From Sphaerolaimus hirsutus (taxonomy: Eukaryota; Nematoda; Chromadorea; Monhysterida; Sphaerolaimidae): a DNA stretch of 64,000 nucleotides. The notes below the pieces were generated by a model that saw only the letters and a program-made list of their open reading frames with translations, searched no databases and had not been told where the DNA came from. Numbering within the stretch: the stretch's first letter is position 1; the number at the start of each line of letters is the position of its first letter. Shown here piece after piece: positions 3,208 to 63,902 of this stretch. A program made the translations under genes and the position numbers. The stretch covers positions 10,475,206-10,539,205 of the forward strand of contig OZ038459.1 in the NCBI GenBank assembly GCA_964036195.1. The letters run 5' to 3'.

Positions 3208-3629
3208 TAGGGTGTCAACTAAACTTTGTTGAAATTTGCTAGAAACAGAAAAAAAATTTGCAAAATTTAGCAAAAATTGCATAAATTTTGTTGGAAACAG
3301 AAAAACTCCATATAATTGAAAACCTGCATGCAGTTTATCAGTTTTGCTGAAACAGAAAACAAAAAGTTGTGCCAGAAAAGGGAAACTGTGTCAGAAAGAC
3401 AGAAAATTTAGACGGAAAATTTAAAAAAGCAAAAACAAACAAACAGAAAATTGAGTCGAATAATGAAAAAGTGGAAAAACTGAAAATTTAGTCAGAAAAC
3501 GGAAAATGAACCGGAAAAACGGAAAAAAGACTAACAGTTTAGCAGGGAAAAAATTTGCAGCTGGAAAGCGGGAGTGGAGATGGACAAAATTTTGCCTGCG
3601 GAAAGCGGAAATGGAAAGTTAACACCCTA
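3208..3629. mobile_element. hAT-like MITE, GGAAA family
   Basis: Ends are TAGGGTGTCAAC and GTTAACACCCTA. The flanks GTTGAGTG (3200-3207) and GTTGAATG (3630-3637) form an 8-bp TSD with one mismatch. The body repeats GGAAAACNGAAA-like words. This matches the longer copy at 49491-51064. Confidence 0.8.
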
Positions 3630-3637
3630 GTTGAATG

Positions 3638-4070
3638 ACGCGATCAATTTGTCTAAGAAAATCCATTGGGTGAATTTACGCACTGATTGATCAATTAGCC
3701 ATCATAGCATTGAAAAAAAATCGCAGCATTCAAACTTTACAAAAATTCCAACATAATTGTAATCATAAAGTTATTGCAATTTCTACAAAAATTTATCTAA
3801 GATGTTTTACCAAGCTATACACAGATCAAAAAGGGTTAAAGTAAACATGCATCAAAGGCCATCACTTGATTGATACTTCATAGTTTGATACTACTGTTGT
3901 TGTTGTTCCAACCGTACAGATCTGAGTCACTCAGTTGGCTATTCAGCTACACAAATAGCTAGATGGTGGAATTTAATACGTGATTAGCCAGCCACCTATA
4001 AGATAGTCTTAATAGCGCACTCAACTCCGAGTGAATTCGGGCTGAAACCCGCCTACATGGAATCATCATA
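3638..4070. other. No feature recognised
   Basis: AT-rich unique-looking sequence with a short GTT/TTG run near 3895. No gene or repeat boundary is visible. Confidence 0.4.
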
Positions 4071-4454
4071 TACCGTATTTCCTCGAATTACCCCCCCCCC
4101 CCCCCCGGTGGGTGATTGTTTCAGAGTGAGAATTTTGAGGGGGGTTAAATGAGGGGGGTATTTCGAGGGGGGCTCATTATTTCGCCAGAAAAGCAAACGT
4201 CGAAAAACGCAACAATAAGCACCATGTATGAGAGTGTATGGACTTACATAAGTATGTAGATGGTATGAAACAGGTGTTAGCGTAACACAGTCATTGTTTT
4301 TCACGTCTGTTCTGCATTGCCCGGATCACAAACTGTGGCTTTTGTCGTTTACGCTCCCTTTACACTGAAAATGGGGGACGGGTATTTCGAGGGAGGGGGG
4401 CTAATATATTCATAGTGCCCATTTCGAGGGGGTGCACTTCGAGGAATAACGGTA
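4071..4454. mobile_element. CCGTATT-type element
   Basis: Left terminus TACCGTATTTCCTCGAA; the right terminus GAGGAATAACGGTA is slightly mutated. Long C and G runs lie just inside. The interior resembles the 6472-6928 copy in reverse orientation. Confidence 0.7.
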
Positions 4455-4656
4455 CATAGCGGACAGGGGTGAGTAGAACACACGACAGGCACAGGCGCCA
4501 GAAAACGATGGCGCTTGTCATTAGCGCCATCAACATTGCTGCTGGTAAGCATGATTGTCGACAGGTTTGTCACATGCCAGAAGTGGTATTATGAAAACAG
4601 CCGCTGACCCCTACCCCTGATACACCCTTAGTTGGTGTGCATGAGAAGCCCGTAGT

Positions 4657-4862
4657 GACAGTCCCACGCCCTGCAAAGTAAAGTGTAAAATGTCATTTAA
4701 AACTGTACATCAAACAAAAAATGAAATGATTGTAGTACCGAATTCTGCATGACAATTGTCACTTTACTTTACTTTTGTCATGACAATTGACACTTTGCTT
4801 GCATGACATTTTACATGACATGTGACACTTCACTTTACACTTTACAGGGCTTGGGACTGCCC
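4657..4862. mobile_element. GTAAAGTGTCA-type TIR MITE
   Basis: Inverted ends contain CAGTCCCACGCCCTG and CAGGGCTTGGGACTG. Between them are repeats of AAAGTGTAAAATGTCA type in both orientations. Relatives occur at 26268-26373 and 63278-63527. Confidence 0.65.
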
Positions 4863-5360
4863 CAACCCCAGGCCCCATAAGAGTATTTATGTGTGTGTCT
4901 GCCTATGCAAACAGTGGTCAATCTTGCATAAATTACTATATAACCACTCAGAACCTTTTATTTTGATAGCCTTTACTTCTCCTGATTATCAGTTTCAATT
5001 CATTAATGAGTAAATTATTGAGAAGTAGACTCCAGAGTTGTTAAAATACTGGTATTTTTGGAAAGCGTAAGCATAAATACACATTCCAAATTTTGAGTAT
5101 GGATACTAAAAGCATAAGGTATTTTTAAAATACCTAGGAAAGCGTAAAAAAGTGTAGGCGTAAAAATTTTTAAGTGTGTGCTCTTGCTGTTTAGTTGAGC
5201 ATTGCACAACGCCCTTCACTTATAGATGAATTTATCGATCATTTCTATTCAGTATTTCACATTTTATCATCAAACATCACATAACAATACAACAATTCGC
5301 ATTGTTCAACAACATGGGTCTCATAGGGTGATTGGGGGTTTCCCCCCAAAATGCTCCAAC

Positions 5361-6469
5361 TACCGTATTTCTTCTAATAGAACAGCATACCTCCAATAAA
5401 ACGGCACCTCCAATAGAATGGCAGGCTTTGGCACTTTTTTACACTCACGAAGGCAATAGAATGGCAGCCTCCAAAAGAACGGCACCTCCAATAGAACGGT
5501 AGGTAGAAATTAATTTTTAAGAGTGCCAGAACACAAAGATATACCTATGAGAAATCAGTGGTTAGAATATCCAGGTTGTTCAGAACTATGATTCAGGGGT
5601 TGTTTTCACATTTGGTTTTGTTTGAATTGATGATCTGATATTAAAATGTCGTTCATGTGTAGGGTTGGAAAAAAACTTTTTTTAACTCGATGTTTTTTTT
5701 AAAAAAACAACGTTTTTTTAAGTTCCCAGATATGACCTAGTGTCAAAATATATAGGTAAAATCAGACAGTGGCAATACTCTGTGATGTTATATATGACCA
5801 TATAATGGCTGTGGAGCCATGGGATAGCATTATAAGTGGTGATTTGTGTCAAAAATATCCATTTTTGTTGACATGTTCGTATATCGCCTTATAGTCAAAT
5901 GTTCATGACTCCGGGTGAAGTTTGGCACGGAAAAGTGATCAAACAAGGTTATAAAAGGAGGTTGTTGTTACTTTGGGAGTGAAGTTACACACTGTGGAGG
6001 TACATGGAAGCACTAGCACATTACCTCAATATTTTATACTACAGCAACATATGACGGCTTATTAACCCATGGTAGCACATAGAAATGGATGCTTTGATAC
6101 TAAAAATGCCACAAAACCAATGAAAACAACCGCCAATGTCAATTTGTGTGTAAAATTGCGCGCTTGCGCGCAAAAATTTTGCAAAATACCTAGTGCTTAG
6201 TACTAAAAATTTCGGCTGTTTAAAAAAAAACATTTCGGACGTCATGTTTTAAAAAAACAATGTTTTTTTTTAAACGTTTTAAAAAAACATCGGCCAACCC
6301 TATTCATGTCTCACTAAAACTACTATGTTCAAATGATAATTGTGTGAAAAAGTTTGATGAAATAAATAGAAAGGCAACCTCCAATTGAACGGCACCTCCA
6401 ATAGAACAGCAGGTAAAAAAGTTGACGAAAAAAATAGAACGGCGCCGTTCCATTAGATAAAATACGGTA
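5361..6469. mobile_element. CCGTATT-type element, AATAGAACGGC subtype
   Basis: Left end TACCGTATTTCTTC; right end AAAATACGGTA. Both arms repeat CTCCAATAGAACGGC modules. It is split by a hAT-like insertion at 5660-6302 and itself lies inside 5033-7475. Confidence 0.75.
5660..6302. mobile_element. hAT-like MITE, TTTTTAAAAAAAC family
   Basis: Ends TAGGGTTGG and CCAACCCTA are flanked by TTCATGTG/TTCATGTC, an 8-bp TSD with one mismatch. Subterminal regions are T-rich/A-rich hairpins with ACGTTTTTT. The interior carries TTGCGCGCTTGCGCGC (6156-6171). Close copies lie at 10396, 21399 and 61940. Confidence 0.85.
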
Positions 6470-6471
6470 TC

Positions 6472-6928
6472 TACCGTATTTCCTCGAAATACCCCCCCCC
6501 CCCTCGAAATACCCCCCCCCCTCGAAATACCCCCCCTCAAAATGGACACTATGAACTTATAAACCCCCCCCCCTCGAAATACCCCCCCCCCAAATTTAGT
6601 GTATAGAGAACGTAAATGACAAAGGCTGCGGTTTGTCATCCCGGCAATGCAGAACACACGTAAAAACGATGACTCTGTTATGTGAGAACAGTGTTTGTAC
6701 GTCTACACACTTATATATGTCTTTAGAGTCTTATAAAAGGCGATTTTTGTTGCATTTTTCGACGTCTGCGTACCTTTCAGACGACAATTTAGTACTGGGA
6801 TTTCAAAAAATTTCTGGCGAAATAATAACCCCCCACCTCGAAATACCCCCCCCCCTCGTTTAACCCCCCCTCAAAATTCTCACTCCGAAAAAATAAACCC
6901 CCCGGGGGTATTTCGAGGAAATACGGTA
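6472..6928. mobile_element. CCGTATT-type element
   Basis: Complete copy with TACCGTATTTCCTCG and its inverted partner ending at 6928. It has three CTCGAAATACCCC blocks on the left. The conserved interior CAATGCAGAACACACGT occurs near 6645. It starts three bases after the neighbouring element ends. Confidence 0.85.
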
Positions 6929-7605
6929 TTTATCCCAGAAGTTGCGCTCTTATTGATCCTGAGGCTCTGCTATATTTTGATACCCAACCCTCCAAAAAAT
7001 GTTTCACCTATTTAGCCCCAAATACTTTCTGCTCTACCGATTTACTATCTCCATTTATTATCTTCCAACTCAGACTTTGTGCTGTTGACGGCGACAACAT
7101 CGTCGTTGGAATCCATAATCCAACCCAAAATTCTCAACCCGATGCCACGATAATACTATATGACAGACTTTTTTTACTACACACTCATATTTTGAACCAA
7201 TTTGTACTTTTGTTGCTTTTTTCAGTGTGTTATTGCACACACGCAGTTAATATCATTACACATCTTCTCGTTCAATTCCTTTTTAGCAGTTTTACGCTTT
7301 TTCAAAAGCATAAAACTGGGTCGTGTGAAATTATTTTTACGCTTTTAGTGTCCGGGTAATTTGGCTGGGAAAGCGTGAAAAAGTGTACGGGTATTTTATG
7401 AAAGCGTAAGCGTAAATATAAATACCTATTTAGCTGGGTATTTCGGGTAAGCGTAAATACACTTTCGCAACTCTGGTAGACTCGACAATCCACATGATAA
7501 CCCTAAGATGTGATATTGTATGTAAAATCCATCTCAGCTATCTTGTGGATATGAAAATATTCAGCCATTATATAATAACCAGCGTTAAACCTATCTATCT
7601 ATCTA

Positions 7606-7932: not shown

Positions 7933-8114
7933 TACCGTATTTCCTCGAAATACCCCCCGGGGTGATTGTTTCATAGTGCTCCCGAGAGGGGGGGGTTAAA
8001 CGAGGGGGGCGGGTATTTCGAGGGGGGTGATTGTTTCATAGTGGTCTCGAGAGGGGGGGGGGGTCAAACGAGGGGGGTATTTCGAGGGGGGGGGTATTTC
8101 GAGGAAATACGGTA
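7933..8114. mobile_element. Short palindromic CCGTATT element
   Basis: Only 182 bp, almost all inverted arms: TACCGTATTTCCTCG and its complement, with two CTCGAGA-type G-rich blocks. It looks like an internally deleted version of the element at 2186-2642, whose flank it shares in inverted orientation. Confidence 0.75.
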
Positions 8115-9833: not shown

Positions 9834-11231
9834 TAGGGTTCAAACGATATATCATATCGGATATCGACCATTTATACATATCGAATATCGATATCGAAAA
9901 TTTTGAAAAAATATTGAATATCGATATTGAAAATTTTGAAAAAATATCGAATATCAATATCGAATATCGACCATTTTGTCGATATATCAAACCTGTATTG
10001 TGTCCCTAATTAAAGTCATTATTTTCATTTTGAGATATTTGTGATTGAACTGATTTACTTAAAGTATTTCATTTGATGAGTAAAAGTACAATATTTATGT
10101 TGTCATTTCTGTTGGTGCGCTGAATTTGAGGCCTGAAAATGCTGATATGCTATTTTTTGCAACATACATCAAGCAATTTGGTTATAAGTATGAACTGTAA
10201 TATTCACTAATTGTTGTTTGCCTGATACACTTTGATTCATCATGTTTTTCTTTCATTTTCTCCTTTTGACTGATGTAAACCTTTTAAAATCACTTGTACT
10301 ATTCACATTTCAGTAAAGAAATGATTAACCAACATTAATCATGTGTGCAACCACATGAAAATACAATATGCCGCTTGAAATTTGCCTTGCTATACTAGGG
10401 TTGGCCGATGTTTTTTTAAAACGTTTTTTAAAAAAACAAAACATGACGTCCGAAATGTTTAAAAAAAAAAAACATCAGCCGAAATTTTTAGTACTAAGTA
10501 CTAGGTATTTTGCAAAATTTTTCCGTGCAAGCGCGCAATTTCACACACAAATTGACATTGGTGGTTGTTTTCATTGGTTTTGTGGCATTTTTAGTATCAA
10601 AGTATCCATTTCTATGTGCGACCATGGGTTAATAAGCTGTGATATGTTGCTTTAGTATATAATATTGAGATAATGTGCTTCCATGTACCTCCACAGTGTG
10701 TAAAATCACTCCCAAAGTAACAACCTCCTTTTAAAACCTTGTTTCATCACTATTCCGTGCCAAACTTTACCTGAAGTCATGAACATTCGACTATAAGGCG
10801 ATATACGAACGATATGTCGACGAAAAATGGATATTTTTGACACAAATCACCACTTATAATGCTATCCCATGGCTCCACAGACATTATATGGTCATATATA
10901 ACATCACAGAGTATTGCCACTGTATGATATACCTATATATGTTGACACAAGGTCATATCTGGGAGCTTTTAAAAAAAAACGTTTTTTATTTAAAAAAAAC
11001 GTTAAAAAAAAAAACATCGAGTTAAAAAACGTTTTTTTTCCAACCCTATGCTATACCAAAAACAAATTGCAATATCGAATATCGAAATATTGAATGTCGA
11101 CCATTTTTTCATATCGAATATCAAATATCGATATCGAGGTTCCATATCGTATCAATATCGAATATCGAGTTTCAGAAAAAAATATTGAATATTGAATATC
11201 GATATTGAAAAGTCATATCGTTCGAGCCCTA
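9834..11231. mobile_element. hAT-like MITE, ATATCGA family
   Basis: Ends TAGGGTTCAAACGATAT and ATATCGTTCGAGCCCTA lie between perfect 8-bp TSDs CTGGGCAG (9826-9833, 11232-11239). Subterminal regions are dense ATATCGAATATCGA repeats. A third element is inserted at 10396-11048. Confidence 0.88.
10396..11048. mobile_element. hAT-like MITE, TTTTTAAAAAAAC family, innermost
   Basis: Ends TAGGGTTGGC and CCAACCCTA are bounded by the perfect TSD TGCTATAC (10388-10395, 11049-11056). It is the same family as 5660-6302 in opposite orientation and the deepest level of a three-level nest. Confidence 0.9.
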
Positions 11232-12845: not shown

Positions 12846-12867
12846 TTTTTGCAAGCCTCTGAGAAGT

Positions 12868-15487: not shown

Positions 15488-15499
15488 AGGTACCCACTA

Positions 15500-15995: not shown

Positions 15996-16080
15996 TCCTG
16001 TAAACACAGCCCCTAGTTTGGAAACTCCTGTAAACTCAGCCCCTAATGTGGAAACTCCTGTAAACTCATTTTCAGGTTTA
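15996..16080 (-). repeat. 30-bp tandem repeat, right arm
   Basis: Only about three units of the 30-bp repeat (CAGCCCCTAATTTGG type), against nine or ten in the left arm. The arms have therefore expanded or contracted independently. Confidence 0.8.
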
Positions 16081-20500: not shown

Positions 20501-23500
20501 ATGGCTACCTTCGCTTCGGATTCGGAGTACAAAACACCGGCCACTTTGAAGAAATCGGATGCTATGCGCGAGCGCAACAGGAGCACCTTCAGACCGCCGC
20601 CATCGCGTAAGTTGGCACTCGGCCAACTTAGTAGATATGAATCGTAGGGTTCTCCTGCGTTACGATCGTGGTTTGGGGAAGATAGACGTGTGAACATGTT
20701 GCCCTAAAATGTCACTGATAGCCTGACGTTAATTCTTGTCCTCCCATGATGAAACTTTAAATGTTTGTCCTCGCTTGATTTAAGTTGAACATTTCCCGCT
20801 AATATGGGGAAGTTTTCGCTGCAATCGCACCAACCCTCGCCCCGCAGTGGCGTCGCAAGCGTCCTACCAGGACCGGCGGCGCATGGCCGAGCTGTCGGCG
20901 GACTTCACGTCGGACAGCCTGTCGGGCTACGCGTACGGCTACGACTTCGCGCGCAGCCAGCGGCACATGGCCCTGCCGCAGTACTTCGCCCGCGGCGAGG
21001 GGGTCATCGAGCACAGGGGCCCCAGCAGGAAGGAATGGCTCATGCAGTTTGAGAAGGTTGGATGCATTGCTTGGATGGTTTACCGTGTTGCCGATGGGGT
21101 TCGGGAGCGTTTTGTTTCAAATGTAGAAGAAACGTAGGGTTCAAACGGTGCTGACTTTTCGGGATCGGGATTGGCTTTTTGATATTTCAGAATCGTGATT
21201 GGGGTTTCGGGATCGGGATTGGTGTTTTGAGATTTCGGGATCGGGACCGGGATTGGCATTTTTTCACGATCGGGATTGAGATCTTTGAAAAAGTGCTCAT
21301 TTTGAAGAGTTTTCGCTAATTTACCGGAAAAATGGGTCTAAAGACACGCACGAATGCCTGAAAAGATGCATAAATTGGTAATTGAAGGTAGTGATGGCTA
21401 GGGTTGGAAAAAAACGTTTTTTTTAACTCGATGTTTTTTTAAAAAAACAACGTTTTTTTAAAATAAAAAACTTTTTTTTAAAAGCTCCCAGATATGACCT
21501 TGTGTCAACATATATAGGTATATCAGACAGTGGCAATACTCTGTGATGTTATATATGACCATATAATGGCTGTGGAGCCATGGGATAGCATTATAAGTGG
21601 TGATTTGTGTCAAAAATATCCATTTTTCGTCGACATATTGTTCGTATATCGCCTTATAGTCAAATGTTCGTGACTTCAGGTAAAGTTTGGCACGGAATAG
21701 TGATCAAACAAGGTTATAAAAGGAGGTTGTTACTTTGGGAGTGAAGTTACACACTGTTGAGGTACATGGAAGAACATTACCTCAATTGTATATAGTACAG
21801 CAACATATGACGGCTTATTAACCCATGGTAGCACATAGAAATGGATTCTTTGATACTAAAAGTGCCACAAAACCAATGAAAACAACCACCAATGTCAATT
21901 TGTGTGTGAAATTGCGCGCTTGCACGCAAAAATTTTGCAAAATACCTAGTGCTTAGTACTAAAAATTTCGGTCGATGTTTTTAAAAAAAAAAAAACGTTA
22001 AAAAAAAACGTTTTACAAAAACGTCGGCCAACCCTAGTGATGGCCAAGGTTTTCAAAGGTTTTTTAATAATAAAAAACGTTTTTTTTAAACCTGACCATC
22101 AAAACCATTTTTTAAATAAAAAAATACTTGGCCAAAAATTTTTGTACTGAGCACCATGTATTTTATTATTTCACCTGTACTTTACCATTTGTGGTGGTTT
22201 TCATTGGTTTTGAGGCCTTTTTAGTGTAAAAGCTTCCATTTGTTTGTGCTATATCTCATCCCCCAAGGCCTGCTAAAGGCTGCAGCCCCCCCTTTCCCGG
22301 GGCGAGACCGGAAACCGGGGGTTGAATAGATAGCAAGCCGTTCCTTTGGAGGGATAGAAAGCTGAAATTTTGATTTTTTTATGGGTTGCAGCGCGAGTTT
22401 TTCAATATATAGGCTTTAAGGTGTAGATTTGTAGAAGGCCGAAAAATGGACGCTCGAATTGGTAATTTTGATGGTGAAAATGGACAAAAGGTTGAAAATT
22501 GATGATTTTGAGCAAAAGGAGTGCAAAATTTCTCAAAAATAGCTGTCATTTGGGGTGGTCAGGGGACAGTAGTCAAAATTTGTGCCTTGGGATCAGGGAT
22601 GGCTGGGTTTTTCAAAAAAAAACAACCTTTTTCAAACCCCCGCTTTAAAAAATACCCATGTCGTTGAAAAACAACAACAACAACGTTTTTTTCATCCCTT
22701 GGGATAGATGATAGCTGAGCGATGCCTGGGATCAGGGGTGGAACAACGTTTTTTAATGACCGACCCCGTTTTAAACTGTTCAAAATCTCAAATTTATGGT
22801 TATGGGTTTTTATTGTTTGGGGGTGGGGTAATCACTAGGGCTCCAGCCAGCCCTTTTGCTTCGGCGCCAGTGCCGGGCGCCAGCATATTGGCGCTTTTAA
22901 ATCACTTCACCAGTGTGCACTATCTTCAGATCGCCCCCATCTTTATAGGTTTCTCAATGCCGGTTTTTTGTTTCGACAATATCAAGTTGACTTTGTGCTC
23001 GCCTCGCAGGTGGTCGACATGCCCGACGGCATCGGCCGGATGACGTTCAAAGTCGACCCCGAGACGGTGGTGTGCTTCCACGGCCGGCACTGGCTGTCCA
23101 ACCTGTACAAGTCGCTGTTGGTGATCGACGGCCACGTGTACCCCACCGCCGAGCACTACTACCAGGCGTGCAAACTGTACCTGCTGGGCGGGCCGCACTG
23201 CTCCAATCGTGGGTTTTGTGTCGCGGTAGATAGTCGGTTGTGGAAAATCGCGTGGGGGAGTAACCTGAATGGATGTAACATGGCGTTTCAAATTAATTTG
23301 GTCGCTTGCGTTGGGACAACACGCCTAATTGTTGGTCTTGAAGAAATATACAGCTTCATGTACGGAGCCGACTTCGTGTTATCTAATTTGAATGATTGGG
23401 CCCAGTAGCACACGCTAGTTGACATCGCAAACTCGTGTCAACTCAATCTCAAATATAAAATAAAATTTTGAAGCATCACACTTACGGAAACGATGAAAAT

Positions 23501-26500
23501 CAAGTTTCATGATGGAAAATTAACAATGTTCTATCAGATAGGAAATTTGAAATGACATAATTCGCTAGAATTTAGTTGCCACAAATTCAGTTGACATCCC
23601 GCGTGTGTGGCACAATTTGAGTTTTTAATTCGCTTCTTTTTGCATCCACATGCTGGCCCTCCAAATTAGCACGTTGCCAGACTGATACGCCAATTTCCTT
23701 TCGTCTTCTCAGGCATCCGCAACATCAACGACGCTGGGCAGGCGAAAATCGCCGCCAAGGAACTACTGCGCACGGTGGTCGGCATGCAGCACATGGACCA
23801 GTGGAAGATGACCGACGGGCCCAAAATAATGCAGCACGCGCTCATCCACAAGTTCGTGCAGCACCCGGAGCTGCGCCAAAAGTTACTGGACACCGGCGAT
23901 GGTTTGCTCGTGCACGCGTTTGAGGGCGACAAGGTTTTCGGCTCTGGCACTAAGGTTGAGGATTTTCAGGAGTGGGCTAAGGAGAACAAGGGGGAGACCA
24001 TCACGGTGAGGAGGGTATGCGGGGATTCTAACTTCGGCTTGACGAGCGTCATATTAAAGTGCTTAAACATTATCGACTACCGAAAAAACATTGTTCTGCT
24101 TTGAACGCACATCAGTTCACCTGAATGAATTGTAGTTGACGGACACGCCAATTCGGTAAACTCAAATGCCCCCAAGGATGATTTATTAATATTCAAAATG
24201 CAAGTATTCATTTATTTGACTCAAAAATTTCAAATAGTAATTTCGATTCAGGTGCCCCGCCGGCTGGACGACCACACGCTGTCCTACTGCCCCAAGGTGG
24301 CCAAGGGCAAGAACGCGCTCGGCGTGCTGCTCATGATGGTGCGCGCCGACATCCGGGACTTCTTCGACAAGCAGAATGATGGCGGCAAGATCGACCCGGA
24401 CGATCCCGTTATGTGTGTCGCGTTGGAGGCGTTGAAACTCACGCCCAAGGTTTGGAGGGGTGAATTTTGATCGTTGTGTGACCGGACTGGTGACTAGGGT
24501 TATTCGGTATGGCCTTCGAAAAAAACGGGTGTCTTGCTTTTGATAGCGGAAAGATGGGTATCTCGGCTAGGGTTCAAACGGGATTGACTTTTCGGGATCG
24601 GGATTGTTTTTTTGAGATTTCGGGATCGGGATTGGCCTTTCGGGATCGGGATCGTTGGAGTTTTTTCGGGATCGGGATATAGGCCTAAAAATTGGTTTTC
24701 AGGGTTGTTTTTTCCTGATATTTTCACAGAATGACCCAAAACACATAACACAATGGATGCCAAATACGTTGTATTAAATTGGCATCCAAAACAATGCTAT
24801 AAATTCATTTAGGCACTGCGCAATGGGCTGCCTGGTATTGTCATTCACACCACTGTCTACCATATGTGCATGTGTTTAAACCTTCAACTATCATAATGGC
24901 TACTGTATCGAGTCCATTTGTAGTGGTGTCCATGCCCACGCAACAGAGCATAGAGGGAGGTGGGGAAATGCGCGCTTGCGCGCAAAAAGTTTTGCAAACT
25001 GCATACAAAATGGTCCTTTAAAAGTGCCATTTCTTGCACCTTTTATGGCTGTGAATTTTCCGGGGTCGTGATTGGGGCATTTTTTCGGGATCGGGATTGG
25101 GATTTTCAAAGTCTCGGGATCAGGATTGGCTTTTTCAAATTTCGGGATCGGGATTGAGGTTTCGGGATCGGGACCACAAAATCCCGAAATTTCTCGGGAT
25201 TCGGGATCGGGATCCCGTTTGAACCCTAATGGGCCCACACACGCTAGTTGACATCGACACCAAATTAGGGTTCAAACGGGATTGACTTTTCGGGATCGGG
25301 ATTCACTTTTTGAGATTTCGGGATCGGGATTGGGGTTTCGGGATCGGGATTGGTTTTTTGAGATTTCGGGATTGGCCGGGATTGGGGTCACGGGATCGGG
25401 ATCGGGATTGGGATTGGCATTTTTCCGGGATCGGGATTGGGTTCTAGGGATAGAGATTTTGGCCATTTTTCTGGCATTCACAGTTGTTCATAAAGGTCTC
25501 AAAACACTGTTGGATGCCAGAAAAGTGACATAAAATTGACGCTGGGGGTTTGCCTGCACATTTCTGCATGCAAAAACGTCATTATTTCACTTTTTATAAT
25601 TTCCACTAATTTTTCCGGGATCGGGATCCCGGACTTCGGAGTTTCTCGGGATCGGGATCGGGATTTGAAAATTTTCGGGATCGGGTTCGGGATTGGTATT
25701 TTTGGATTTCGGGATCGGGATTGGGGTTTCGGGATCGGGATCGGGACTGGTAAATCCCGGAATTTCACGGGATCCGGGATCGGGATCCCGTTTGAACCCT
25801 ACACCAAATGTCAACTGGTGCCGATCCCGATTCCAAGTTTGCTGACGAGCCGACGAACGACGTTTCAACGCAAGCTTTGAATTGGGAACGGAACCAGTTG
25901 ACATTTGGTGTCGATGTCAACTAGCGTGTGTGGGGCCAATCGCTGGGATTTCAAAAAATTCTGGTCAAATAATAATCTCCCCTGAAACCCCCCCCCCCCC
26001 TCAAAATTTCCACGCTGAAAAATTAACCCCCGGGAGGTACTTCGACGAAATACGGTAATTACATAAAATTTCAACCCAATTAATAAATTTGTTTAATCAC
26101 AGGTGGAAGAAGAGAAGAAATCGCGCAAGGAAGCGTGGGAAAAGAAACAGAAAGAGAAAGCCGAGAGGGCTGCTAAGGAAGGGGAAACTGATGAGGATAA
26201 GGAAAAGGAGAAGGATAATAAGGATAAGGTGAACTTTTTTGTTCAATTAGTCCAGGCTGTGCACTGTGGGCAGTCCCAAGTAAAGTGCCAAAATTCAGAA
26301 TTAAAATGTTTTATTTTTGGTTTTGTTGACATTTTACATGGCGTTTGACACTTACAGGGCTTGGGACTGCCACCTGGTTTTGCCATTTCTTACGTGCACT
26401 TTTTTAGAGAACAGCTTTTTTATGCACGGAATCACTTTCGTGTTCGGTCAAGTCTGGGGTTAGAACCTTTTGTTGTCAGCATTTAAAGAGTCTTAAATCG

Positions 26501-30111: not shown

Positions 30112-31448
30112 TAGTGATGGAATGTCGCCCTTGGCGCTTGGCGCCATTTTCGCTGGCGCCAATTTGGCGCCCGGCGCCATTGTTTTGGATGGCGCCAGAA
30201 ATAGCGCCAAAATTCCGCTAATAAATGTGACCAAATAGGACATTTTTGGACATTGTATTGTAGGTCGTTACACAAAGCAGTCCCATGTACAATATGTACT
30301 ATATTTCCTTGAAATACCCCCCTCGAATTAACCCCCACCCCCTCGAAATACTCCCAGGTTTTTTCGAGCTGAGTAAAAAATTACACCCTCTCGAAATACC
30401 CCCGTCTGGAATTAGGTACATCATGTACACAATGTACATGATGTATTGATCGATGCCAATATGCATCACAGCCACACATAATAAGGCTAGTTTGTGTGGC
30501 CATCTACATTGATACATCTAACAATATCCTGTTTTGTACCTTTTATTACCAGTTTTGGGTAGGTAAAAAGCCCATTTTTACTACAGTGTCCAGTGACGAA
30601 AAATGTGGCGGTGACGCAGTGATTGTCACCGCCTGCTTTTTCGATGTCACCGCAAGAAAACTGCAGTTTGTGATCTGTATATTGCAGAACACACATTAAA
30701 TGCAATGACTGAGTTATGTTAGCCAGGGGTTACCTAGATTTCGACACTCCGGGGGTTGGACACATGGCAAATCGCTCCTCAAGAGGGATAAATAGCTGGA
30801 AAATTTTCTGGAGGGGTGGCGGGGTTGGGGTAGGGTTTCGCGTGGGTTCAATATATAATATATACAAATATTGGTGTCACTGCCTCAAAAATGCCTGTCA
30901 CTCACTGTCACCGCCAGAATTGTGGACCTTTTTTCATCTATGACAGTGTCTCGAAAATTTCTGAGGGAATAATACAGCCACCCCTCGAATACCCCCCCCC
31001 TCAACATGCCCCCTCGAAATTTGTACTCTGAAAAAAAACCCTATGGGTATTTCGACGAAATACGGGTTAGCTGCGGCGATGTAGATTGGCTGGCAGCCAT
31101 TAAAACATCATGTTCACTGCAAACATGCTGTACTTTATTACAGAGGGGGTGTCGAGTGGGGGTTATTTTTTCCCCAGCTCGCTCAGACCTGGGCGTATTT
31201 CGAAGGGGAATTAATTCAAGGGGTATTTGGAGGATATACGGTAGCATATTGCTCTTCTAAAAAAGCTTCTGTTACGATATATCTGCTAAAAGAGTGCATT
31301 TTATCGCCCGGCGCCATTTTTTCTGGCGCCCTTTGGCGCCTGGCGCCATTTTTTTAGATGGCGCCGTGGCGCCATTTTCTCTGGCGCCCGGCGCCATCAT
31401 TTTGAATGGCGCCATGGCGCCATTTTTCCTGGCGCTTTTCCATCACTA
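30112..31448. mobile_element. hAT-like element, GGCGCC palindrome family, copy 1
   Basis: Ends TAGTGATGGAA and TTCCATCACTA are flanked by CTGCCGCT/GTGCCGCT, an 8-bp TSD with one mismatch. Both subterminal zones are packed with GGCGCCATTTT and CTGGCGCC palindromes. The interior contains a CCGTATT-type insertion also present in copy 2 (62476-63855). Confidence 0.88.
30297..31075. mobile_element. CCGTATT-type element inside hAT-like copy 1
   Basis: The left end is mutated (TACTATATTTCCTTG); the right end is CGACGAAATACGGG. A GATAGATAG-type fragment (about 30725-30850) lies within it. Boundaries are approximate because both tips have decayed. Confidence 0.55.
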
Positions 31449-35100: not shown

Positions 35101-36368
35101 GGTCTGTGTCAACTCAGATTTCGGCTTCACGCGTCGCAGCGCTATCTCACAATGTCACTTGACGTAATATTCATTTGTCAACATTGCCGCCTGTGCATTT
35201 GGAGATCGCGCTGCGATACGTGAAGCCGAAATCTGCGTTGAGACAGATCAGTTGACACACATGTGTCAAGTATTGTGCGGCCTAGGGTTGGCAAGCGATT
35301 TTTTTTAAGCGATTTTTTTTAAAAAAATTTCGATTTTTTTAAAAAAAAATCGCAGCACCCGTACCGATTTTTTTTAAAAAAAATTGCTGGCAAAAAATTT
35401 TGGTACTCAAGCACTAGGTAAAATGCAAAAATTTTGCGCGCGAGCGCGCACTTTCATGCAAACAATCCACAAGTTGCTTTTTTCATGGCTTTGACAACCA
35501 ATTTGGGGGGTGTAGTACCCATTTATGTGTACTTTTAAGCGTGTAAGGTAGGCTGTGAATTATTTTAGGAAGTATTCATAGTTATGCTTTGTGTTGTCAC
35601 ATCAAACATTTATGCAAAATGCATCCATGTTCACTTCCAATATCATTTATATTTTGTTCTGAGCAAGAACATGCTATTTCTGCAAATAAAATTGCAAATT
35701 GTCAATGAAGTGTGATTCACGTCACAAATATAACAATTTAATTACATTTACACTAAAAATAACTGACTTTCAAGCTTTTCTGAAGCTCTACTGTACTTAT
35801 ATTAGCACAGAAAGTATAAGTGTGCACTCCCTACCAATTTATATGGCTTTTATTACCCCCAGAGGCGATTTTATGCAGAAATGGGGCTAATTTTGACCCC
35901 AGCGATTTTTATTAAAAAAATCGATTTTTTTTAAAAAAAATCGATTTTTTTTAAAAAAAATCGGGGTCGTTAAAAAAAATCGATTTTTTTCCAACCCTAG
36001 TGCGGCCGCCAAAGTACGCTACGATATAGGTAAATGTGATGTGTGATGAGATGACGAGATTGTCAACTGACGCGACAGCGATGAATGTGAGAGCTGCAAT
36101 TGACGCCATTGGCGACAGGTGCACAGCGTCAAGTCACCGCAGTGTACTATCATTTGACGGTTACTTTCAGGAGCTGCCGCCTCCAGCGCCACCAACGACC
36201 ACGGCTGCGCCAACTTCCAGACGAGCGGGCGACTCCGCCACCACGACAACTACCCAGGCGGCACCTCAGGTGGGTAGTCTTCTATTACTACACCCGCAGT
36301 TGCAGTTTGCAGTTTGCAGCTTGGACAGTTTGCAGTTTGCACCCATACGGATTTATGTCACATGTTGA
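32109..36368 (+). CDS. Secreted Cys-rich protein, 5 exons, unrecognised
   Basis: Exons: 32109-32269, 32708-32955, 33545-33708, 34468-34653 and 36171 onward, with matching phases (2, 1, 0, 0) and donors such as GTCAGT, GTGAGT and GTGGGT. Residues 1-20 form a signal peptide (MRHLLLAAVCC...CCG), predicting export. Residues about 55-136 carry a Cys cluster (IECSPLQRAECTRDC, then SCRLAPSWC and YCCAS). Exons 3-4 add more Cys and an Arg/Ala-rich region. Exon 5 gives a Pro/Thr-rich tail (PPPAPPTTTAAP) that could be O-glycosylated. The frame is open to TGA 36366-36368 (318 residues). Alternatively, donor CAG|GTGGGT at 36269 is used and joins an unseen exon; acceptor 41389 would add four residues and a stop. 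I do not recognise the family. Confidence 0.65.
32985..33380. mobile_element. CCGTATT-type element (intron 2 of secreted gene)
   Basis: TACCGTATTACCTCG at 32985 and GAGGTAATACGGTA ending 33380; complete copy of the TATTACC subtype. It starts 29 bp after the exon 2 donor. Confidence 0.85.
34037..34434. mobile_element. CCGTATT-type element (intron 3 of secreted gene)
   Basis: TACCGTATTTCCTCG and GAGGAAATACGGTA ends, complete. It finishes 33 bp before exon 4, so the splice acceptor region lies close to a transposon edge. Confidence 0.85.
34772..34940. mobile_element. Short T-rich hAT-like MITE (intron 4)
   Basis: CAGGGTTGG and CCAACCCTG ends with flanks GTCTTAAC/GTCGTAAT (six of eight match). 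The interior repeats ATTTTATTTTAATTTTATT. Confidence 0.65.
35066..36010. mobile_element. CACACACTAGTTGACA MITE, interrupted (intron 4)
   Basis: Left end GACCCACACACTAGTTGACA. The right part has GTTGACACACATGTGTCA and continues after the insertion as GCCGCC. It contains the hAT-like element 35283-35999, which duplicated its GTGCGGCC. Confidence 0.65.
35283..35999. mobile_element. hAT-like MITE, GATTTTTTTTAAAAAAAATC family
   Basis: TAGGGTTGG and CCAACCCTA ends with perfect TSD GTGCGGCC (35275-35282, 36000-36007). Subterminal hairpins repeat CGATTTTTTTTAAAAAAA. The interior TTTTGCGCGCGAGCGCGC (about 35432) matches the shared palindrome of other families. Confidence 0.9.
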
Positions 36369-40516: not shown

Positions 40517-41373
40517 TAGGGCTTGAACTTGACTCGACTCGACTCGTGACTCGAGGGTAAAATTGGGTACCGACTCGACTCTCCCGACTCTACCAGAAAA
40601 ATATGGCCCTGACTCGAGACTTGAGGTTTTTCCCTGACTTGACTCGAAATTTTGGCAAAATCGGAGTCGGGGTTCCCATTGAAAAATGTCCAAAAATTTC
40701 AGTTTTGATATGAATTTTTTTACATATTTTTCAAAAATTTGGCGCACAAGTGCGCATTTCCACACCATATGCAAGATACCATATTTCCTTGAAACACCCC
40801 CTTGAAACACCCCCCCCTCGAAATACCCCCATGTGTTTTTGAGCTGAGGAAAAAATACCCCCATCCCTCAAAGTACCCCGTCTGGAATATCATCATCAGG
40901 TACATCATGTATGCAATATACATGATGTATTAATAGAGGCCAATTTGCACCGCAGCTACACACCTGATTTGTGTAGCAATGTACGTTGATATGTCCTTAT
41001 ATAGCCTATTTAGTCATGTTTTTTTTACCAGTTTTGGGTATGTAAAGGCCCATTCTTTACTACAATCTTTACGAAAATTTCTGGCAAAATAAGAAAAGCC
41101 CCCTCAAACTATCCCCCTTGAAATTTCCAGTCTGAAAAAAAAAATTGACTTCATGAGTGTGTGTGAGAACATCGGTATAAAAACCAGTATCTGAAATTTC
41201 TGCTAGAATCATGCAAAAAAGTAATGAATCTGACTCGACTCGAGACTCGAGATTTTTGCCTGACTTGACTCGAATTTTCACTGACTCGCCCGACTCGACT
41301 CGCTGACATGACCGGATAAATTTTGGGGTTGTGACTCGAACTCGAGTTTGAAAAAATCTAGTTTCGAGCCCTA
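40517..41373. mobile_element. hAT-like element, GACTCGACTCG family
   Basis: Ends TAGGGCTTGAAC and AGTTTCGAGCCCTA are bounded by CCAACACC/ACAACACC (one mismatch). Subterminal zones repeat GACTCGACTCGAG. The interior has GGCGCACAAGTGCGC near 40741 and a CCATATTTCC remnant (about 40775-41135). Its right TSD ends seven bases before the transporter exon. Confidence 0.88.
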
Positions 41374-49490: not shown

Positions 49491-51064
49491 TAGGGTGTCA
49501 AATTTCCGTTTCCGTTTTCCGTTTCCGCCTTTCCGCAGGAAAATTTTTTACCTTTCCGTTTTCCGTTTTCCGGCAGCTGAAAAATTTTTACCTTTCCGTT
49601 TTCCGTTTTCCGGCAGCCGAAAAAATTTTACCTTTCCGTTTTCCGGCAGCTGAAAATTTTTTACCTTTCCGTTTCCGTTTTTCCGGCCCATTTTTCCATT
49701 TTCCGGCTGAAAAATTTTTAGCTTTCCGTTTCCGTTTTACCAGGCCATTTTTTCCATTTTCTGCCTCGATTTTCAGTTTTCTGGCTCTTTTCCATTGTTT
49801 TTCCAATCTGTATTTATCTTCAATTGGCTCATCCCATTGTGTTGTTTTTGTCTCTTGGAGCAGCATTGACAACTGCGATTTCAGGGTCAGTGAAACAGGT
49901 GCTGTGAACCCAATTGAGTCATATGCTGACACCAATAATTTATTCAAGTTTTGTCTGGTTGGTGTTGTGATGCTGTCAATTTGCAATTTTGGTGTTGATA
50001 TTGCCAGCATGTCCATTCGGTGATTTTATTTCATGCCCATTACTGCGACAATTTTATTCACCTTTGGACTCCTGTCGTTTTCTGCTATTTCATTCATGAC
50101 TGATCTGGAGTTTGACAGCCATCATTGGTCAAATAAAGCTTTGACTTTGTAATATAGTTCTAAAGCTTCAACTTCATTTGTGACACTCATGATGAAGTTA
50201 TCGACGTAAATGTTGTTTATTATCATCGCCAACTGGTTTCGTTCCCCTTCATTTTCTTCATATTCATTCATGTTGTTTATTGTCACATTTAAATGGTATT
50301 TTATGACTGCTCCCAAAATTGCTGGGCTGCAGACAAGTCCAAACAGTATGCGTTTAAAACAAAGTACTATAAAGTTATTTTCAGTTACTGGTTTTGAGGC
50401 ATCTTTCAGCCAGAAAAATCGTGTGTAGTCTCTAGCTTGGTCATGCAATCCTATTTGAAAAAATGCCTTTTCAATATTGGCAATTAATGCTAGATTGCCT
50501 GCCCTGAACCTCAGGAGTAGGCCCAGTGCGTATGGTGTTGTAATTGGTCCTCTAAAAAGGCACTCATTGAAACTGGGCTTACCTGACGACCCATCGTACA
50601 CGATTCTGCATGATGTCGATTTGCCCGGCGTGATTACTGGCTGGTGTGGCAGGTAATGAATCCCCTTGTTGTCTGTTTTGTTGTCACAGATCTCAATTAT
50701 TCCCTTTTCTAGTTGGTCGTCCAAAACTTTCCAGTATTGTTCGAATAAGTTTGGATCTTTGTTGAATCTTCTTATCAGTGATTTAAACCGCACCAAGGCT
50801 TCTGCTTTATTTTTTTCCGTTTCCGTGAAAATTTTGCTTTCCGTTTTCCGTTTTCCGGCATTTCATTTTTCCGTTTTCCGTTTTCCGGCCGACAATTTTT
50901 TTTTACCTTTCCGTTTTCCGTTTTCCGCTGAGTGAAATTTTTTTACCTTTCCGTTTTCTGTTTTCCGGCAGAAATTTTTTTTTTACCTTTCCGTTTTCCG
51001 TTTTCCATAAAGTGAAAAAAATTTACCTTTCCGTTTTCCGTAGAAAATTTTTTTTGACACCCTA
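49491..51064. mobile_element. hAT-like TTTTCCG element carrying a Pao fragment
   Basis: Ends TAGGGTGTCAAATTTCCG and TTTTTTGACACCCTA lie between perfect TSDs TAGAATAC (49483-49490, 51065-51072). Both flanks of the cargo are CCGTTTTCCGTTTTCCGGC arrays in the same orientation. Between them (about 49780-50812) is BEL/Pao coding sequence on the minus strand. The short copy at 3208-3629 lacks cargo. Confidence 0.9.
49780..50812 (-). pseudogene. BEL/Pao retrotransposon reverse transcriptase fragment
   Basis: Reading right to left: YLPHQPVI, SCRIVYDGSSGKPSFNEC, LFRGP, LLLRFR, ANIEKAFFQIGL, DYTRFFWL, LFGLVCSPAILGAVIKYHL and YVDNFIMSV, in the order and spacing of Pao reverse transcriptases, followed by the ASIYDPLGF...P-type region (SAYDSIGFTAPVSL, WDEPI). 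The usual metal-binding YVDD motif appears as YVDN, as is typical of this clade. In-frame stops near 50119 and 50030 break it. There is no gag, integrase or LTR, so it is an internal fragment that probably arrived inside the surrounding hAT-like element. Confidence 0.88.
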
Positions 51065-55602: not shown

Positions 55603-55604
55603 TA

Positions 55605-60124: not shown

Positions 60125-60132
60125 ATGTACAC

Positions 60133-61171
60133 CAGAGTTGTACAAATACTGGTATTTTTGGAAAACGTAAACGTAAACGTAAATACCTTTTCCAAATCAA
60201 AAGTATAAATACTAAAACGTAAGGTATTTTTAAAATACCAAGGAATACGTAAAAAAAACGTAAACGTAAAAATTTTATACATGTAGTATTTGTCATTTTG
60301 CTTTGGAAAATACCATTATTTTCAGCCTTACACGGGTCAATTGATGATTTCCATACAATATTTTTATGTTTTTAGCACTACATGCTCACCATAATGAACT
60401 ACATCGAGTCAGACAACTATAACAAATCATAATCTAACACAAACAATGGTGATATAAACATCAAAATTGAGCAAAAGTTACACCTTTTTGTCATTCAATC
60501 TGATCAATAACTTGCTCAAATGTTTCCATATCCCAAATGGATCCTTTTACCAAATTTCAAAAGCCCAGCATGGCAATGGACGCTCTACAGCACTGTTTCA
60601 GTGCATTGCAACTTTTCAAAGCGTTTGTTTAGCCTATTTTGGAAAAATGTCTCATAAAATATACTATGACATCTGCCATACCTATATGAAGACGGAACCT
60701 AAAATTGTGTAAAAAATTTTCATCATGAATATTACATTTCTTTCACTATTTTGTTCATAATCTGTTGTCAGTTTATGACAAAAGACAGTTACATTTTTAT
60801 GTGCGACATTGACTCCAGTCAGTAAGCAATAGTGGCTATGTATTGGACTGTATTTTATATTTGAGGTATTGTCTGTAATCATTCTAATCGATGCACTGAA
60901 GTGTTCGCCACATCATTCTGATCATTTTAAGTGCTCAAGCATCATAATCGGTAGAAAATTCATGGAAATATGCAGTTCCGTCCGAGGGCACGGCCACTAA
61001 GAAACTACTTAATATCGGAATTTTTACGTTTTCCCAAGTACCCGGGTATTTCGGTCAGGAAAACGTAACAAAACGTAATGGTATTTTTGGAAAACGTAAA
61101 CGTAAACGTAAATATAAATACCCGAATAACCGGGTATTTTGGGTAAACGTAAATACGTTTTTCCAACTCTG
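60133..61171. mobile_element. hAT-like element, AACGTAAACGTAAA family
   Basis: CAGAGTTG and CAACTCTG ends with perfect TSD ATGTACAC (60125-60132, 61172-61179). Subterminal repeats GAAAACGTAAACGTAAA on both sides. Same family as 5033-7475 but without nested insertions. No transposase found in its 1.0 kb. Confidence 0.92.
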
Positions 61172-61935: not shown

Positions 61936-61939
61936 TAAT

Positions 61940-62386
61940 TAGGGTTGGCCGATGGGTTTTTTTAACATGATGTCTGAAATGTTTTTTTTTTTTTAAAACA
62001 TCCGCCGAAATTTTTAGTACTAAGCACTAGGTATTTTGCAAAATTTCGCGCGCAATTTCACACACAAATTGACATTAGTGGTTGTTTTCATTGGTTTTGT
62101 GGCATTTTTAGTATCAAAGTATCCATTTATATGTGCTACCATGGGTTAATAAGCCGTCATATGTTGCTGTAGTATATAATATTGAGGTAATGTGCTTCCA
62201 TGTACCTCCACAGTGTGTAACTTCACTCCCAAAGTAACAACCTCCTTTTATAACCTTGGTTGATCACTATTCCATGCCAAACTTTACCTGAAGTCATGAA
62301 CATTCGACTATAAGGCGATATATGAATGATATGTCGATGAAAAATGGATATTTTGGACGCAAATCACCACTTATAATGCTATCCCT
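61940..62386. mobile_element. hAT-like TTTTTAAAAAAAC MITE, right-truncated
   Basis: TAGGGTTGGCCGATG start and interior match 10396-11048 up to GCTATCCC, where the copy stops. Confidence 0.8.
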
Positions 62387-62757
62387 TATTAGCTAAATAT
62401 TTAAATGCTTCCACCGCTGCGGCTATGAACCCCTGCCCAGCGGGTCGCGTGAATATTTTTTATGCGTGTCATATGTAGTGATGGAATGGCGCCATGGCGC
62501 TGGCGCCATTTAATGGCGCCATCTGGCGCCTGGCGCCATTATTTCGAATGGCGCCATGGCGCCCTTGGCGTTTGGCGCCATTTTCGCTGGCGCCATTGTT
62601 TTGGATGGCACCAGAAATGGCGCCAAAATTCCGTGAATAAATGTGACCAAATAGGACATTTTCGGACATTTTATCGTAGATCGTTACACAAAGTAGTCAT
62701 TGTATTTTACCATATTTGGTACCATATGTATTTAGCCATCTACAAATTTGATACATC

Positions 62758-63155
62758 TACTGTATTTCCTCGAAAAACCCCAGGGGGTTTATTTTTTCAT
62801 AGTGAGATTTTTGAGGGGGGTTAAACGAGGGGGTTATTACTTTGCCAGAATTTTTTTGAAATCCCAGTACTAAGTTGTTGTGTGTAACATACACAGACGT
62901 CAAAAAATGCAACAAAAACCACCATGTATCCGCCAAGACTCTATAGACTTACCTAAATATATCCTGTTTTGTCACTTTTATTACCAGCTTTGGGTAGGTA
63001 AAAGCCCATCCCTACTACACTCTGTCTCAGACATTTCTGGGGAAATAATACAACTACCCCTCGAATAAACCCCACACCCCACGAAATGCCCCCCCCCTCG
63101 AAATTTTCACTTTGAAAAAATAAACCCCCTATGGGTATTTTGAGGAAATACGGTA
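62758..63155. mobile_element. CCGTATT-type element inside hAT-like copy 2
   Basis: Left end TACTGTATTTCCTCG, right end GAGGAAATACGGTA. The surrounding AGCTGCGATGTA and GTTACACAAAG words match copy 1, so the insertion predates the split of the two hosts. Confidence 0.75.
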
Positions 63156-63277
63156 TAGCTGCGATGTAAATTGGCAGCCATAGAAACATCATGTTCTTTG
63201 CAAACATGATGAACCTTATTACAGACGGGGGCGTCGATTAGGGGTTAATTTTTCACCTGCTCGCTCAGACCAGGTGG

Positions 63278-63527
63278 CAATCCCAAGCCCTGTAAAGTGT
63301 AAAGTAAAGTGTCAAATGTAAAGCCAAATGAAAAGTAAAGTGTCAAATGTAAAGTCAAATGCAAAGTAAAGTGTCAAATGTAAAATCAAATGCAAAGTAA
63401 AGTGTCAATTGCCATGCAAAGTTCAGTAATAAAATCTTTTCTTTTTTGTTTTGATTGACACTTTACTTTGCATTTGACTTTACATTTGACACTTTACTTT
63501 ACACTTTACAGGGCTTGGAATTGCCCC
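63278..63527. mobile_element. GTAAAGTGTCA TIR MITE
   Basis: GGCAATCCCAAGCCCTG and CAGGGCTTGGAATTGCC ends enclose tandem AAAGTAAAGTGTCAAATGT units in both orientations. Copy 1 of the host element has no insertion at this place (near 31193). Confidence 0.8.
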
Positions 63528-63902
63528 CTGGTGGTATTTCGAAGGGGAATTAATTCAAGGGTTTATTTGGAGAAAATGTGGTAACATATTGCTCTTCTAA
63601 CAACGCCTCTGTTATGATATACATGCTAAAATAGTGACTTTAATCGTTGGCGCAATTTTGGCGCCCGGCGCCATTTTTTCAGATGGTGCCGTGGCGCCAT
63701 TGGCGCCTGGCGCCATTTTCTCTGGCGCCCTTTGGCGCCCGGCGCCATTATTTTGAATGGCGCCTGGCGCCATTTTCTCTGGCGCCCTTTGGCGCCCGGC
63801 GCCATTATTTTGAATGGTGCCTGGCGCCATTTTTCCTGGCGCTTTTCCATCACTAGTCATATGCAAATTTGGCGCTGATGTACAGCCATTCCTTTACGCT
63901 TC

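What the first reader, a model, noticed from the sequence alone, without database searches (positions are those of the whole stretch)
3208..63855. hAT-like families each carry a private short-repeat subterminal code
Seen: elements with 8-bp TSDs have subterminal zones built from a family-specific motif: TTTTCCGTTTTCCG (3208, 49491), ATATCGA (9834), CGGGATCGGGATT (25266), GACTCGACTCG (40517), AACGTAAACGTAAA (5033, 60133), GGCGCCATGGCGCC (30112, 62476), T8A8 hairpins (5660, 10396, 21399, 35283). Known: hAT transposases such as Ac bind short subterminal repeats. Inference: these may be diverged transposase-binding arrays that look like microsatellites, one code per transposase lineage.
Basis: partly seen in the sequence, partly recalled or inferred. 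Interest (0 to 1): 0.72.

Follow-up and report, generated by a model that had tools for sequence, protein, structure and literature searches.

The report
Jumping genes with one-way end barcodes
Several families of hAT jumping genes in this genome carry, inside each tip, a block of short repeats that is nearly exclusive to the family and, in the best-studied families, reads the same way at both ends; relatives with identical tips use a different repeat word, as expected if the block is a docking address for a matching enzyme.

Summary
The window holds 15 elements with inverted tips and 8-bp duplications (0.68 expected by chance), plus one at 40517. Related copies across the 348-Mb genome show that the subterminal repeats are real, abundant and close to private to each family. 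hAT dimerisation domains lie inside four tip clans, and one 6-kb element also encodes a BED finger. (1) In the non-palindromic families best sampled the arrays are polar: the motif reads on one strand at both ends although the tips are inverted (clan A 20 of 20 elements, clan TAGGGTTCAAAC 20 of 20, a control group 0 of 7), always opposite to the transposase fragment (14 of 14). (2) One identical 13-bp tip carries at least three mutually exclusive codes (CGGGAT, CGATAT, CGGGACC); the letters differ in the motif copies while the tip and the nearest spacer stay. (3) Array-only elements of 58-278 bp occur in these codes and in clan A, as collapse between same-strand arrays would give. Best reading: transposase-binding arrays that change code in concert and mark left versus right end. 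Binding, and the match between motif and BED domain, could not be tested.

The parts
3208..3629 (-). clan A element (TAGGGTGTCAA tips), old copy; motif CGGAAA on + strand, decayed at CpG
   Evidence: TSD GTTGAGTG/GTTGAATG, tips 1 mismatch; decay counts
49491..51064 (+). clan A element, code TTTTCCG (=CGGAAA on -), 36 TTTCCG copies in the two 300-bp ends, all on + strand; interior holds a reverse-transcriptase fragment
   Evidence: TSD TAGAATAC perfect; polarity; relatives L009-L026; RVT_1
9834..11231 (+). clan TAGGGTTCAAAC, code CGATAT (ATATCGA on +), with a T8A8 element nested inside
   Evidence: TSD CTGGGCAG perfect, TIR 2 mismatches; same-strand 62 vs inverted 15 shared 8-mers
25266..25801 (+). 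clan TAGGGTTCAAAC, code CGGGAT, same strand at both ends
   Evidence: TSD CACCAAAT and 12-bp TIR perfect; 26 forward vs 3 reverse in the ends
40517..41373 (+). TAGGGCTTGAAC element, code GACTCG, 15 forward 0 reverse in the ends
   Evidence: TSD 7/8; same 33 vs inverted 7
5033..7475 (+). clan CAGAGTTG, code variant GCGTAA; contains nested 5660-6302
   Evidence: TSD GTAGACTC perfect; same 23 vs inverted 16
60133..61171 (+). clan CAGAGTTG, code ACGTAAA; CGTAAA 10 forward 1 reverse in the ends
   Evidence: TSD ATGTACAC perfect; (same 42 vs inverted 18)
30112..31448 (.). clan TAGTGATG, palindromic code GGCGCC
   Evidence: TSD 7/8 CTGCCGCT/GTGCCGCT; same 20 vs inverted 14
62476..63855 (.). clan TAGTGATG, palindromic code GGCGCC with strand-biased flanking letters
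   Evidence: TSD GTCATATG perfect; same 38 vs inverted 16
5660..6302 (.). clan TAGGGTTGG, palindromic T8A8 arrays
   Evidence: TSD TTCATGTG/TTCATGTC; no polarity, 16 vs 17
10396..11048 (.). clan TAGGGTTGG, T8A8 arrays, nested in 9834-11231
   Evidence: TSD TGCTATAC perfect; 17 vs 13
21399..22036 (.). clan TAGGGTTGG, T8A8 arrays
   Evidence: TSD GTGATGGC perfect; 13 vs 16
35283..35999 (.). clan TAGGGTTGG, GCGATTTTTTT/T8A8 arrays
   Evidence: TSD GTGCGGCC perfect; 31 vs 34

Best explanation
These are hAT DNA transposons, nearly all of those examined non-autonomous. Their subterminal zones are arrays of a 6-7-bp word, each code made of its own word. Shown: the arrays lie inside bounded, TSD-flanked elements, and in four clans such elements carry hAT transposase fragments. 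A code is nearly exclusive to its family. In clan A and the TAGGGTTCAAAC clan the word reads on one strand at both ends, with fixed direction relative to the transposase gene where one is present. Elements with the same 13-bp tip carry different words in the tip-adjacent copy and in the array alike, while keeping the tip and the adjoining spacer. Inferred: the tip is read by the conserved catalytic part of the transposase, and the word by its BED finger. The same-strand layout makes left and right end non-equivalent, so that the transposase pairs a left with a right end. Because both arrays lie on one strand, copying and recombination can spread a changed word through the element, so a lineage switches code and becomes deaf to its sister's enzyme. 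The same layout lets arrays collapse to short array-only elements.
For: hAT identity: 15 elements against 0.68 by chance; perfect TSDs of 64 deduplicated elements, pooled over both strands, lean to GTCnnGAC; PF05699 domains inside the elements; L077, a 6,006-bp element with perfect TSD CCTTGGCG, gives dimerisation domain E 4.9e-17 and a two-exon BED finger E 8.2e-5, above the family cut-off, and its C-terminus matches Hermes in the PDB at 7.8e-13. Private codes: clan A 696 CGGAAA in 24 elements and at most 3 of any other tallied word; three TAGGGTTCAAAC codes exclusive of each other in 21 of 21 elements but for 2 stray copies; of 3,241 CGATAT-type tips, 1,312 are followed within 34 bases by CGATATCGATAT and 0 by CGGGATCGGGAT. 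Word change with tip and spacer kept: 25266 and L087 differ in the first 38 bases by GG-to-AT in all three motif copies and one T. Polarity: clan A 20 of 20, TAGGGTTCAAAC clan 20 of 20, control group 0 of 7; of 38 paired CGATAT tips among the first 100 listed, 32 have exactly one end of the first type, 0 have two, 6 had no exact match; ORF strand opposite to the motif 14 of 14. Literature: Hermes has BED domains that bind subterminal repeats, and symmetrised LE/LE elements were inactive (PMC10368747, passages); Herves binds its own repeated motif (PMC3143072, passages); Ac binds AAACGG, which the clan A array spells (PMC3260210, passages).
Against: No binding was shown. No BED domain could be tied to clan A or the TAGGGTTCAAAC clan; 7 of the 10 BED matches in the genome lie in one cluster on C1. 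Spacers too are shared more on the same strand in 17 of 19 elements tested (exceptions L016 and L087), so polarity may be a relic of one duplicated array and not selected. Palindromic codes cannot mark the ends through the motif itself: T8A8 gives 96 vs 96 over five elements, TAACGATGG 222 vs 181, while the GGCGCC clan has a moderate excess through flanking letters, 371 vs 170. Clan CAGAGTTG is only partly polar (5 of 7, one at three-fold). The GGCGCCA word is shared with the CARGGRCGTA group. In L077 the strand call rests on two ACGTAA copies.
Confidence: 0.6

Rival explanations
1. Array-first relic: each family began as one tandem array between two tips, and filler or a transposase gene was later put inside it. 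Same-strand orientation and shared words at both ends follow from that history, and selection on end identity is not needed.
For: Spacers, not just motifs, are shared more on one strand (17 of 19 elements). Array-only elements of 58-278 bp exist in codes CGGAAA, CGATAT, CGGGAT and CGGGACC.
Against: Polarity is fixed relative to the transposase gene in clans with clearly different tips (14 of 14) and is present, weakly, in the 6-kb L077 element. A word that differs at the tip and in the array alike, with an unchanged tip and adjoining spacer, is not explained by history alone. Array-only elements may be collapse products.
Confidence: 0.22
2. The arrays are ordinary microsatellite or minisatellite growth by slippage inside inert elements, with no function.
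For: Copy number varies between copies, and several arrays score as tandem repeats.
Against: The arrays are concentrated in the element ends, near-exclusive to a family, compound (motif plus A/T spacer), and present in nine of nine clan A elements that were found by their transposase domain and not by the word. The word differs between sister codes at the tip and in the array, not in the adjoining spacer.
Confidence: 0.07
3. Same-strand orientation is kept because mirror-image arrays would form long hairpins or double-stranded RNA that destabilise or silence the element.
For: Inverted sharing is scarce in clan A (1,682 same-strand vs 73 inverted) and in the TAGGGTTCAAAC clan (1,079 vs 121).
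Against: The T8A8, TTCGAA and GGCGCC families have self-complementary words at both ends and occur repeatedly in the stretches read.
Confidence: 0.09
4. The arrays are read by a host protein (for example a CpG-methylation-sensitive or silencing factor) and not by the transposase.
For: 12 of the 13 words tallied contain a CpG against 16% of window 6-mers, and the CpG is the main decay site in the old copy 3208. The words were picked by eye and several are related.
Against: A host reader does not predict a different word for each transposon lineage.
Confidence: 0.06

Closest known systems
Ac/Ds (maize hAT)
   Same: Short TIR, repeated 6-bp transposase-binding word AAACGG within about 200 bp of each end, variable filler in non-autonomous copies (PMC3260210, passages). 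The clan A array spells AAACGG; the 8-bp TSD and the likeness of TAGGG tips to Ac's are recalled.
   Different: Here the words form dense same-strand arrays, and sister families with one tip carry different words.
Hermes (housefly hAT)
   Same: BED fingers read short subterminal repeats; symmetrised left/left ends were inactive (PMC10368747, passages). L077's C-terminus matches Hermes.
   Different: In the passages read, Hermes repeats are 4-bp words (AAGT/AAGC), 17 and 14 in the two ends, with a quasi-palindrome at the left end; its ends differ by layout, not by a polar tandem array.
Herves (mosquito hAT)
   Same: One motif, CG/AATTCAT, repeated at both ends and sufficient for transposase binding (PMC3143072, passages).
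   Different: No code variants under one tip are described in the passages read.
Kat1 (yeast domesticated hAT)
   Same: A hexamer repeated between the TIRs whose polarity is said to differ between the two ends (PMC4763223, passages).
   Different: One hexamer at the mating-type locus, six exact copies; no family of codes in the passages read.
Tag1 and Tol2 (hAT)
   Same: Transposases bind short subterminal repeats (named in the passages).
   Different: PMC3143072 says that the Ac and Tol2 motifs differ between left and right ends; here the word is the same at both ends and its direction relative to the tip differs.

Membership tests
hAT superfamily | 8-bp target-site duplication | tested here: met
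   chance level
hAT superfamily | short terminal inverted repeats starting (C/T)A(G/A)NG | tested here: met
   (this start was also the search criterion)
hAT superfamily | C-terminal dimerisation domain PF05699 in the element | tested here: met
   clans A, TAGGGTTCAAAC (CGATAT), CAGAGTTG, TAACGATGG. None of the 28 matches inside CGGGAT, CGGGACC, GACTCG, CGGTTC, T8A8 or GGCGCC elements
hAT superfamily | BED zinc finger | tested here: met
   only in L077, after joining two exons by hand, E 8.2e-5; the genome-wide search listed 10 matches, none tied to the other clans
hAT superfamily | RNase H-like DDE catalytic core | tested here: inconclusive
   L077 reading pieces contain DIWSQKG and DNGSNM, which resemble hAT catalytic motifs as recalled; no Pfam hit
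Ac-type subterminal transposase-binding repeats | short word repeated near both tips | tested here: met
Ac-type subterminal transposase-binding repeats | bound by the element's own transposase | not testable with these tools
   needs protein and DNA
Foldback elements | tandem arrays in inverted orientation at the two ends (definition recalled) | tested here: not met
   arrays are same-strand in clans A and TAGGGTTCAAAC

The most novel reading that the evidence does not exclude
A hAT lineage has split its end recognition into two layers: a frozen tip for the catalytic core, and a fast-changing polar word array that both names the lineage and marks left versus right. Same-strand arrays let the word be replaced throughout the element, so that sister families in one genome become mutually deaf. 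This is a natural orthogonal address system, whose words centre on a CpG that methylation might switch.
Probability: 0.3. Interest if true: 0.82.

Novelty: new variant of a known kind. Interest (0 to 1): 0.62.

Why it matters
How a transposase tells its own elements from near-identical relatives, and left end from right end, has been worked out for a few elements (Hermes, Ac, Herves). Here one genome offers at least three mutually exclusive codes under one identical tip, with thousands of tips for two of them (8,581 and 3,241), and a fixed polarity. Specificity switching and end identity could be tested by swapping only the word or only its direction.

Tried and rejected
Rejected: chance matches; simple microsatellites; 3208 as a + strand TTTTCCG element; my first reading that codes follow tips one to one, overturned. 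Not reached: full-length transposases of clan A or the TAGGGTTCAAAC clan, hence no comparison of BED residues with words; the organism's name; no structure prediction was run. Genome counts for TAGGGTTCAAACGGGACC, for CGGGAT tips with a CGGGAT array, for CGGGAT tips with a CGATAT array, and for the other end type of CGGGAT never came back, so the genome-wide cross table is half filled (only). Rows dropped: duplicates by identical end sequences (the window element 25266 is absent from the 20 for that reason); the group 'other' is not shown, and it has same-strand excess in 8 of 11, among them 40517. Sampling: the first places on contig C1, the PF05699 hits and the window, not a random draw. The clan A copies were fetched by their word and one search listed only + strand places, so presence of the array and overall orientation were selected there, though agreement between the two ends was not; the nine clan A elements were found by the domain. 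Elements were sorted to the three TAGGGTTCAAAC codes by their commonest word.
Full report
Setting. The window is bases 10,475,206-10,539,205 of contig C15 of a 348.5-Mb assembly in 762 contigs.

Check of the observation. A mechanical scan for hAT-like tips with inverted repeats and an 8-bp duplication found 15 elements against a mean of 0.68 (maximum 3) in 60 resampled sequences. The end zones hold the stated words, with two corrections: 3208 is a decayed copy with the word on the other strand, and 5033 carries GCGTAA.

They are hAT. Of 28 PF05699 matches in the genome, 22 lie inside bounded elements with these tips: nine in clan A (L029, L030, L033, L034, L048, L049, L050, L053, L056), three in TAGGGTTCAAAC/CGATAT (L039; L037 and L038, both in L079:3798-6985), three in CAGAGTTG (L031 in L077, L032, L035 in L081) and seven in a further clan TAACGATGG (L041, L042, L044, L045, L046, L052, L054), of which L044 and L045 are neighbours on C626 with the same duplication. 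The other six (L036, L040, L043, L047, L051, L055) were not enclosed in what I held. L081:3874-4876 has the duplication CCCAAAAC on both sides. One element, L077:244-6249, is 6,006 bp with a perfect duplication. Its minus strand encodes a BED finger over two exons (E 8.2e-5), pieces that resemble the hAT catalytic core, and a dimerisation domain. Dimerisation fragments of clan A and the CGATAT code share 22-26 of 46-50 residues, those of A and CAGAGTTG 14-17 of 48-49, so similar tips go with similar enzymes.

Private words. Counting 13 words in the ends (up to 250 bp each, tips left out) of the classified elements gives a nearly block-diagonal table: clan A 696 CGGAAA, with 18 CGGAAA elsewhere; GACTCG 15 in its element and 1 elsewhere; CGGTTC 23 in its element and 7 elsewhere; CGATAT 210 in its code and 7 elsewhere; the CGGGAT and CGGGACC codes 188 and 41, with one stray copy of each in the other. 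The exception is GGCGCCA: 97 in clan TAGTGATG and 30 in the CARGGRCGTA group.

One tip, several codes. TAGGGTTCAAAC occurs 16,617 times (reversed control 37). 8,581 continue GGGAT and 3,241 GATAT. Of six elements read because their tips were not in the GGGAT list, two were CGATAT (L082, L087) and four showed a third code, CGGGACC (L083-L086). Put side by side (18 elements), one end type reads TAGGGTTCAAACG-word-ACTTTT-CG-word-CG-word in CGGGAT and CGATAT codes, and closely so in CGGGACC. Between 25266 and L087 the first 38 bases differ by GG-to-AT in all three word copies and by one T. The tip and the adjoining spacer stay; spacers further in vary. Genome-wide, 1,312 GATAT tips are followed within 34 bases by CGATATCGATAT and none by CGGGATCGGGAT. 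Small departures exist: L039 has CGAGAT at one tip, L084 CGAGACC and L085 CGGCACC. Other tips also carry more than one code: TAGGGTTGG has T8A8 and CGGTTC (L078; L11/0 R12/0); TAGTGATG has GGCGCC, GGCGCTT and CGGTGCC; CAGAGTTG has ACGTAAA, GCGTAA and, in L077, ACGCGTAC-like words.

Polarity. Tips are inverted, but in the best-sampled non-palindromic families the array reads on one strand at both ends. Shared non-palindromic 8-mers between the two ends: clan A same-strand 1,682 against inverted 73, 20 of 20 elements; TAGGGTTCAAAC clan 1,079 against 121, 20 of 20; 40517 33 against 7; L078 50 against 3. Six further CGGGAT elements were fetched later: five agree and the sixth, the 58-bp L089, has words in one half only. 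The CARGGRCGTA elements, used as a control, give 46 against 62, 0 of 7 with an excess. T8A8 gives 96 against 96, TAACGATGG 222 against 181, TAGTGATG 371 against 170 (7 of 7, through letters around the palindrome); CAGAGTTG is intermediate (167 against 84, 5 of 7). Pairing of tip lists without further letters gave 38 CGATAT elements among the first 100 tips listed: 32 with exactly one end of the first type, 0 with two, 6 without an exact match. In the 14 elements tested that hold a transposase fragment, it lies on the strand opposite to the CG-word in all 14 (9 clan A, 2 CGATAT, 3 CAGAGTTG).

Collapse products. Of 30 paired CGGGAT tips among the first 100 on C1, lengths run from 58 to 1,357. 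L089 is 58 bp with a perfect 8-bp duplication, though of low complexity; L088 is 58 bp without one. Array-only copies of 100-278 bp with perfect or one-mismatch duplications occur in four codes (L011, L026, L048:2878-3016, L057, L072, L073, L082, L091). Direct arrays allow such collapse after insertion; mirror arrays would not. This is inference.

Mechanism. Published hAT work shows BED domains reading short subterminal repeats, and in Hermes inactive left/left elements (passages of PMC10368747); Herves and Ac each read their own repeated motif (passages). I infer that these arrays are such sites, that polarity makes left and right differ, and that the word can be replaced throughout an element because both arrays lie on one strand. 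The chief doubt is that spacers are shared on the same strand too (17 of 19), which an array-first origin would also give. Binding and BED-word matching are untested.

CpG. Twelve of the 13 words tallied contain CG against 16% of window 6-mers, and CpG transitions dominate the decay of the old copy 3208. In younger clan A arrays they are the commonest single changes of TTTCCGTT (14 and 16) but closely followed by two others (13 each). The words were picked by eye and are partly related, so this is a lead only.

Novelty. Seven library searches listed no title or abstract start on polar subterminal arrays or on several codes under one hAT tip; PMC4763223 mentions polarity of repeats in Kat1 in one sentence of the passages seen. 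Most subscription journals are not in that library.

Noticed in passing
window 50122-50862 (-): A reverse-transcriptase fragment (RVT_1, E 3.4e-05, below the family cut-off) sits inside the clan A element 49491-51064; five of six other long clan A copies tested hold it at 96-99% identity (L009, L012, L017, L019, L025; not L021), so a hAT element seems to have captured and amplified it.
   Followed up: partly
window 11648-19382: Large inverted structure of satellites: 116-bp, 30-bp and 27-bp arrays mirrored around about 14 kb (longest arms 516 nt, 93% complementary).
   Followed up: no
window 2190-2638, 6476-6924, 7937-8110, 34041-34430: Another putative inverted-tip family, GTATTTCCTCGAAATACCCC, with CCCCCTCGAA words inside, sometimes nested in hAT elements; its duplications were not tested.
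   Followed up: no
L009:948-1871 and 1880-3719: A TAGTGATG element and a clan A element stand back to back in one target, all three flanks being GTCAAAAC: it looks as if one hAT inserted into the duplication of another.
   Followed up: no
G000 C1:7466186-7680097: Seven of the ten BED-finger matches of the genome lie in one 214-kb cluster on the same strand, perhaps a host multi-BED gene family.
   Followed up: no
L089 and L088: 58-bp elements made of little more than two tips and a few words; L089 has a perfect 8-bp duplication of low complexity, L088 none.
   Followed up: partly
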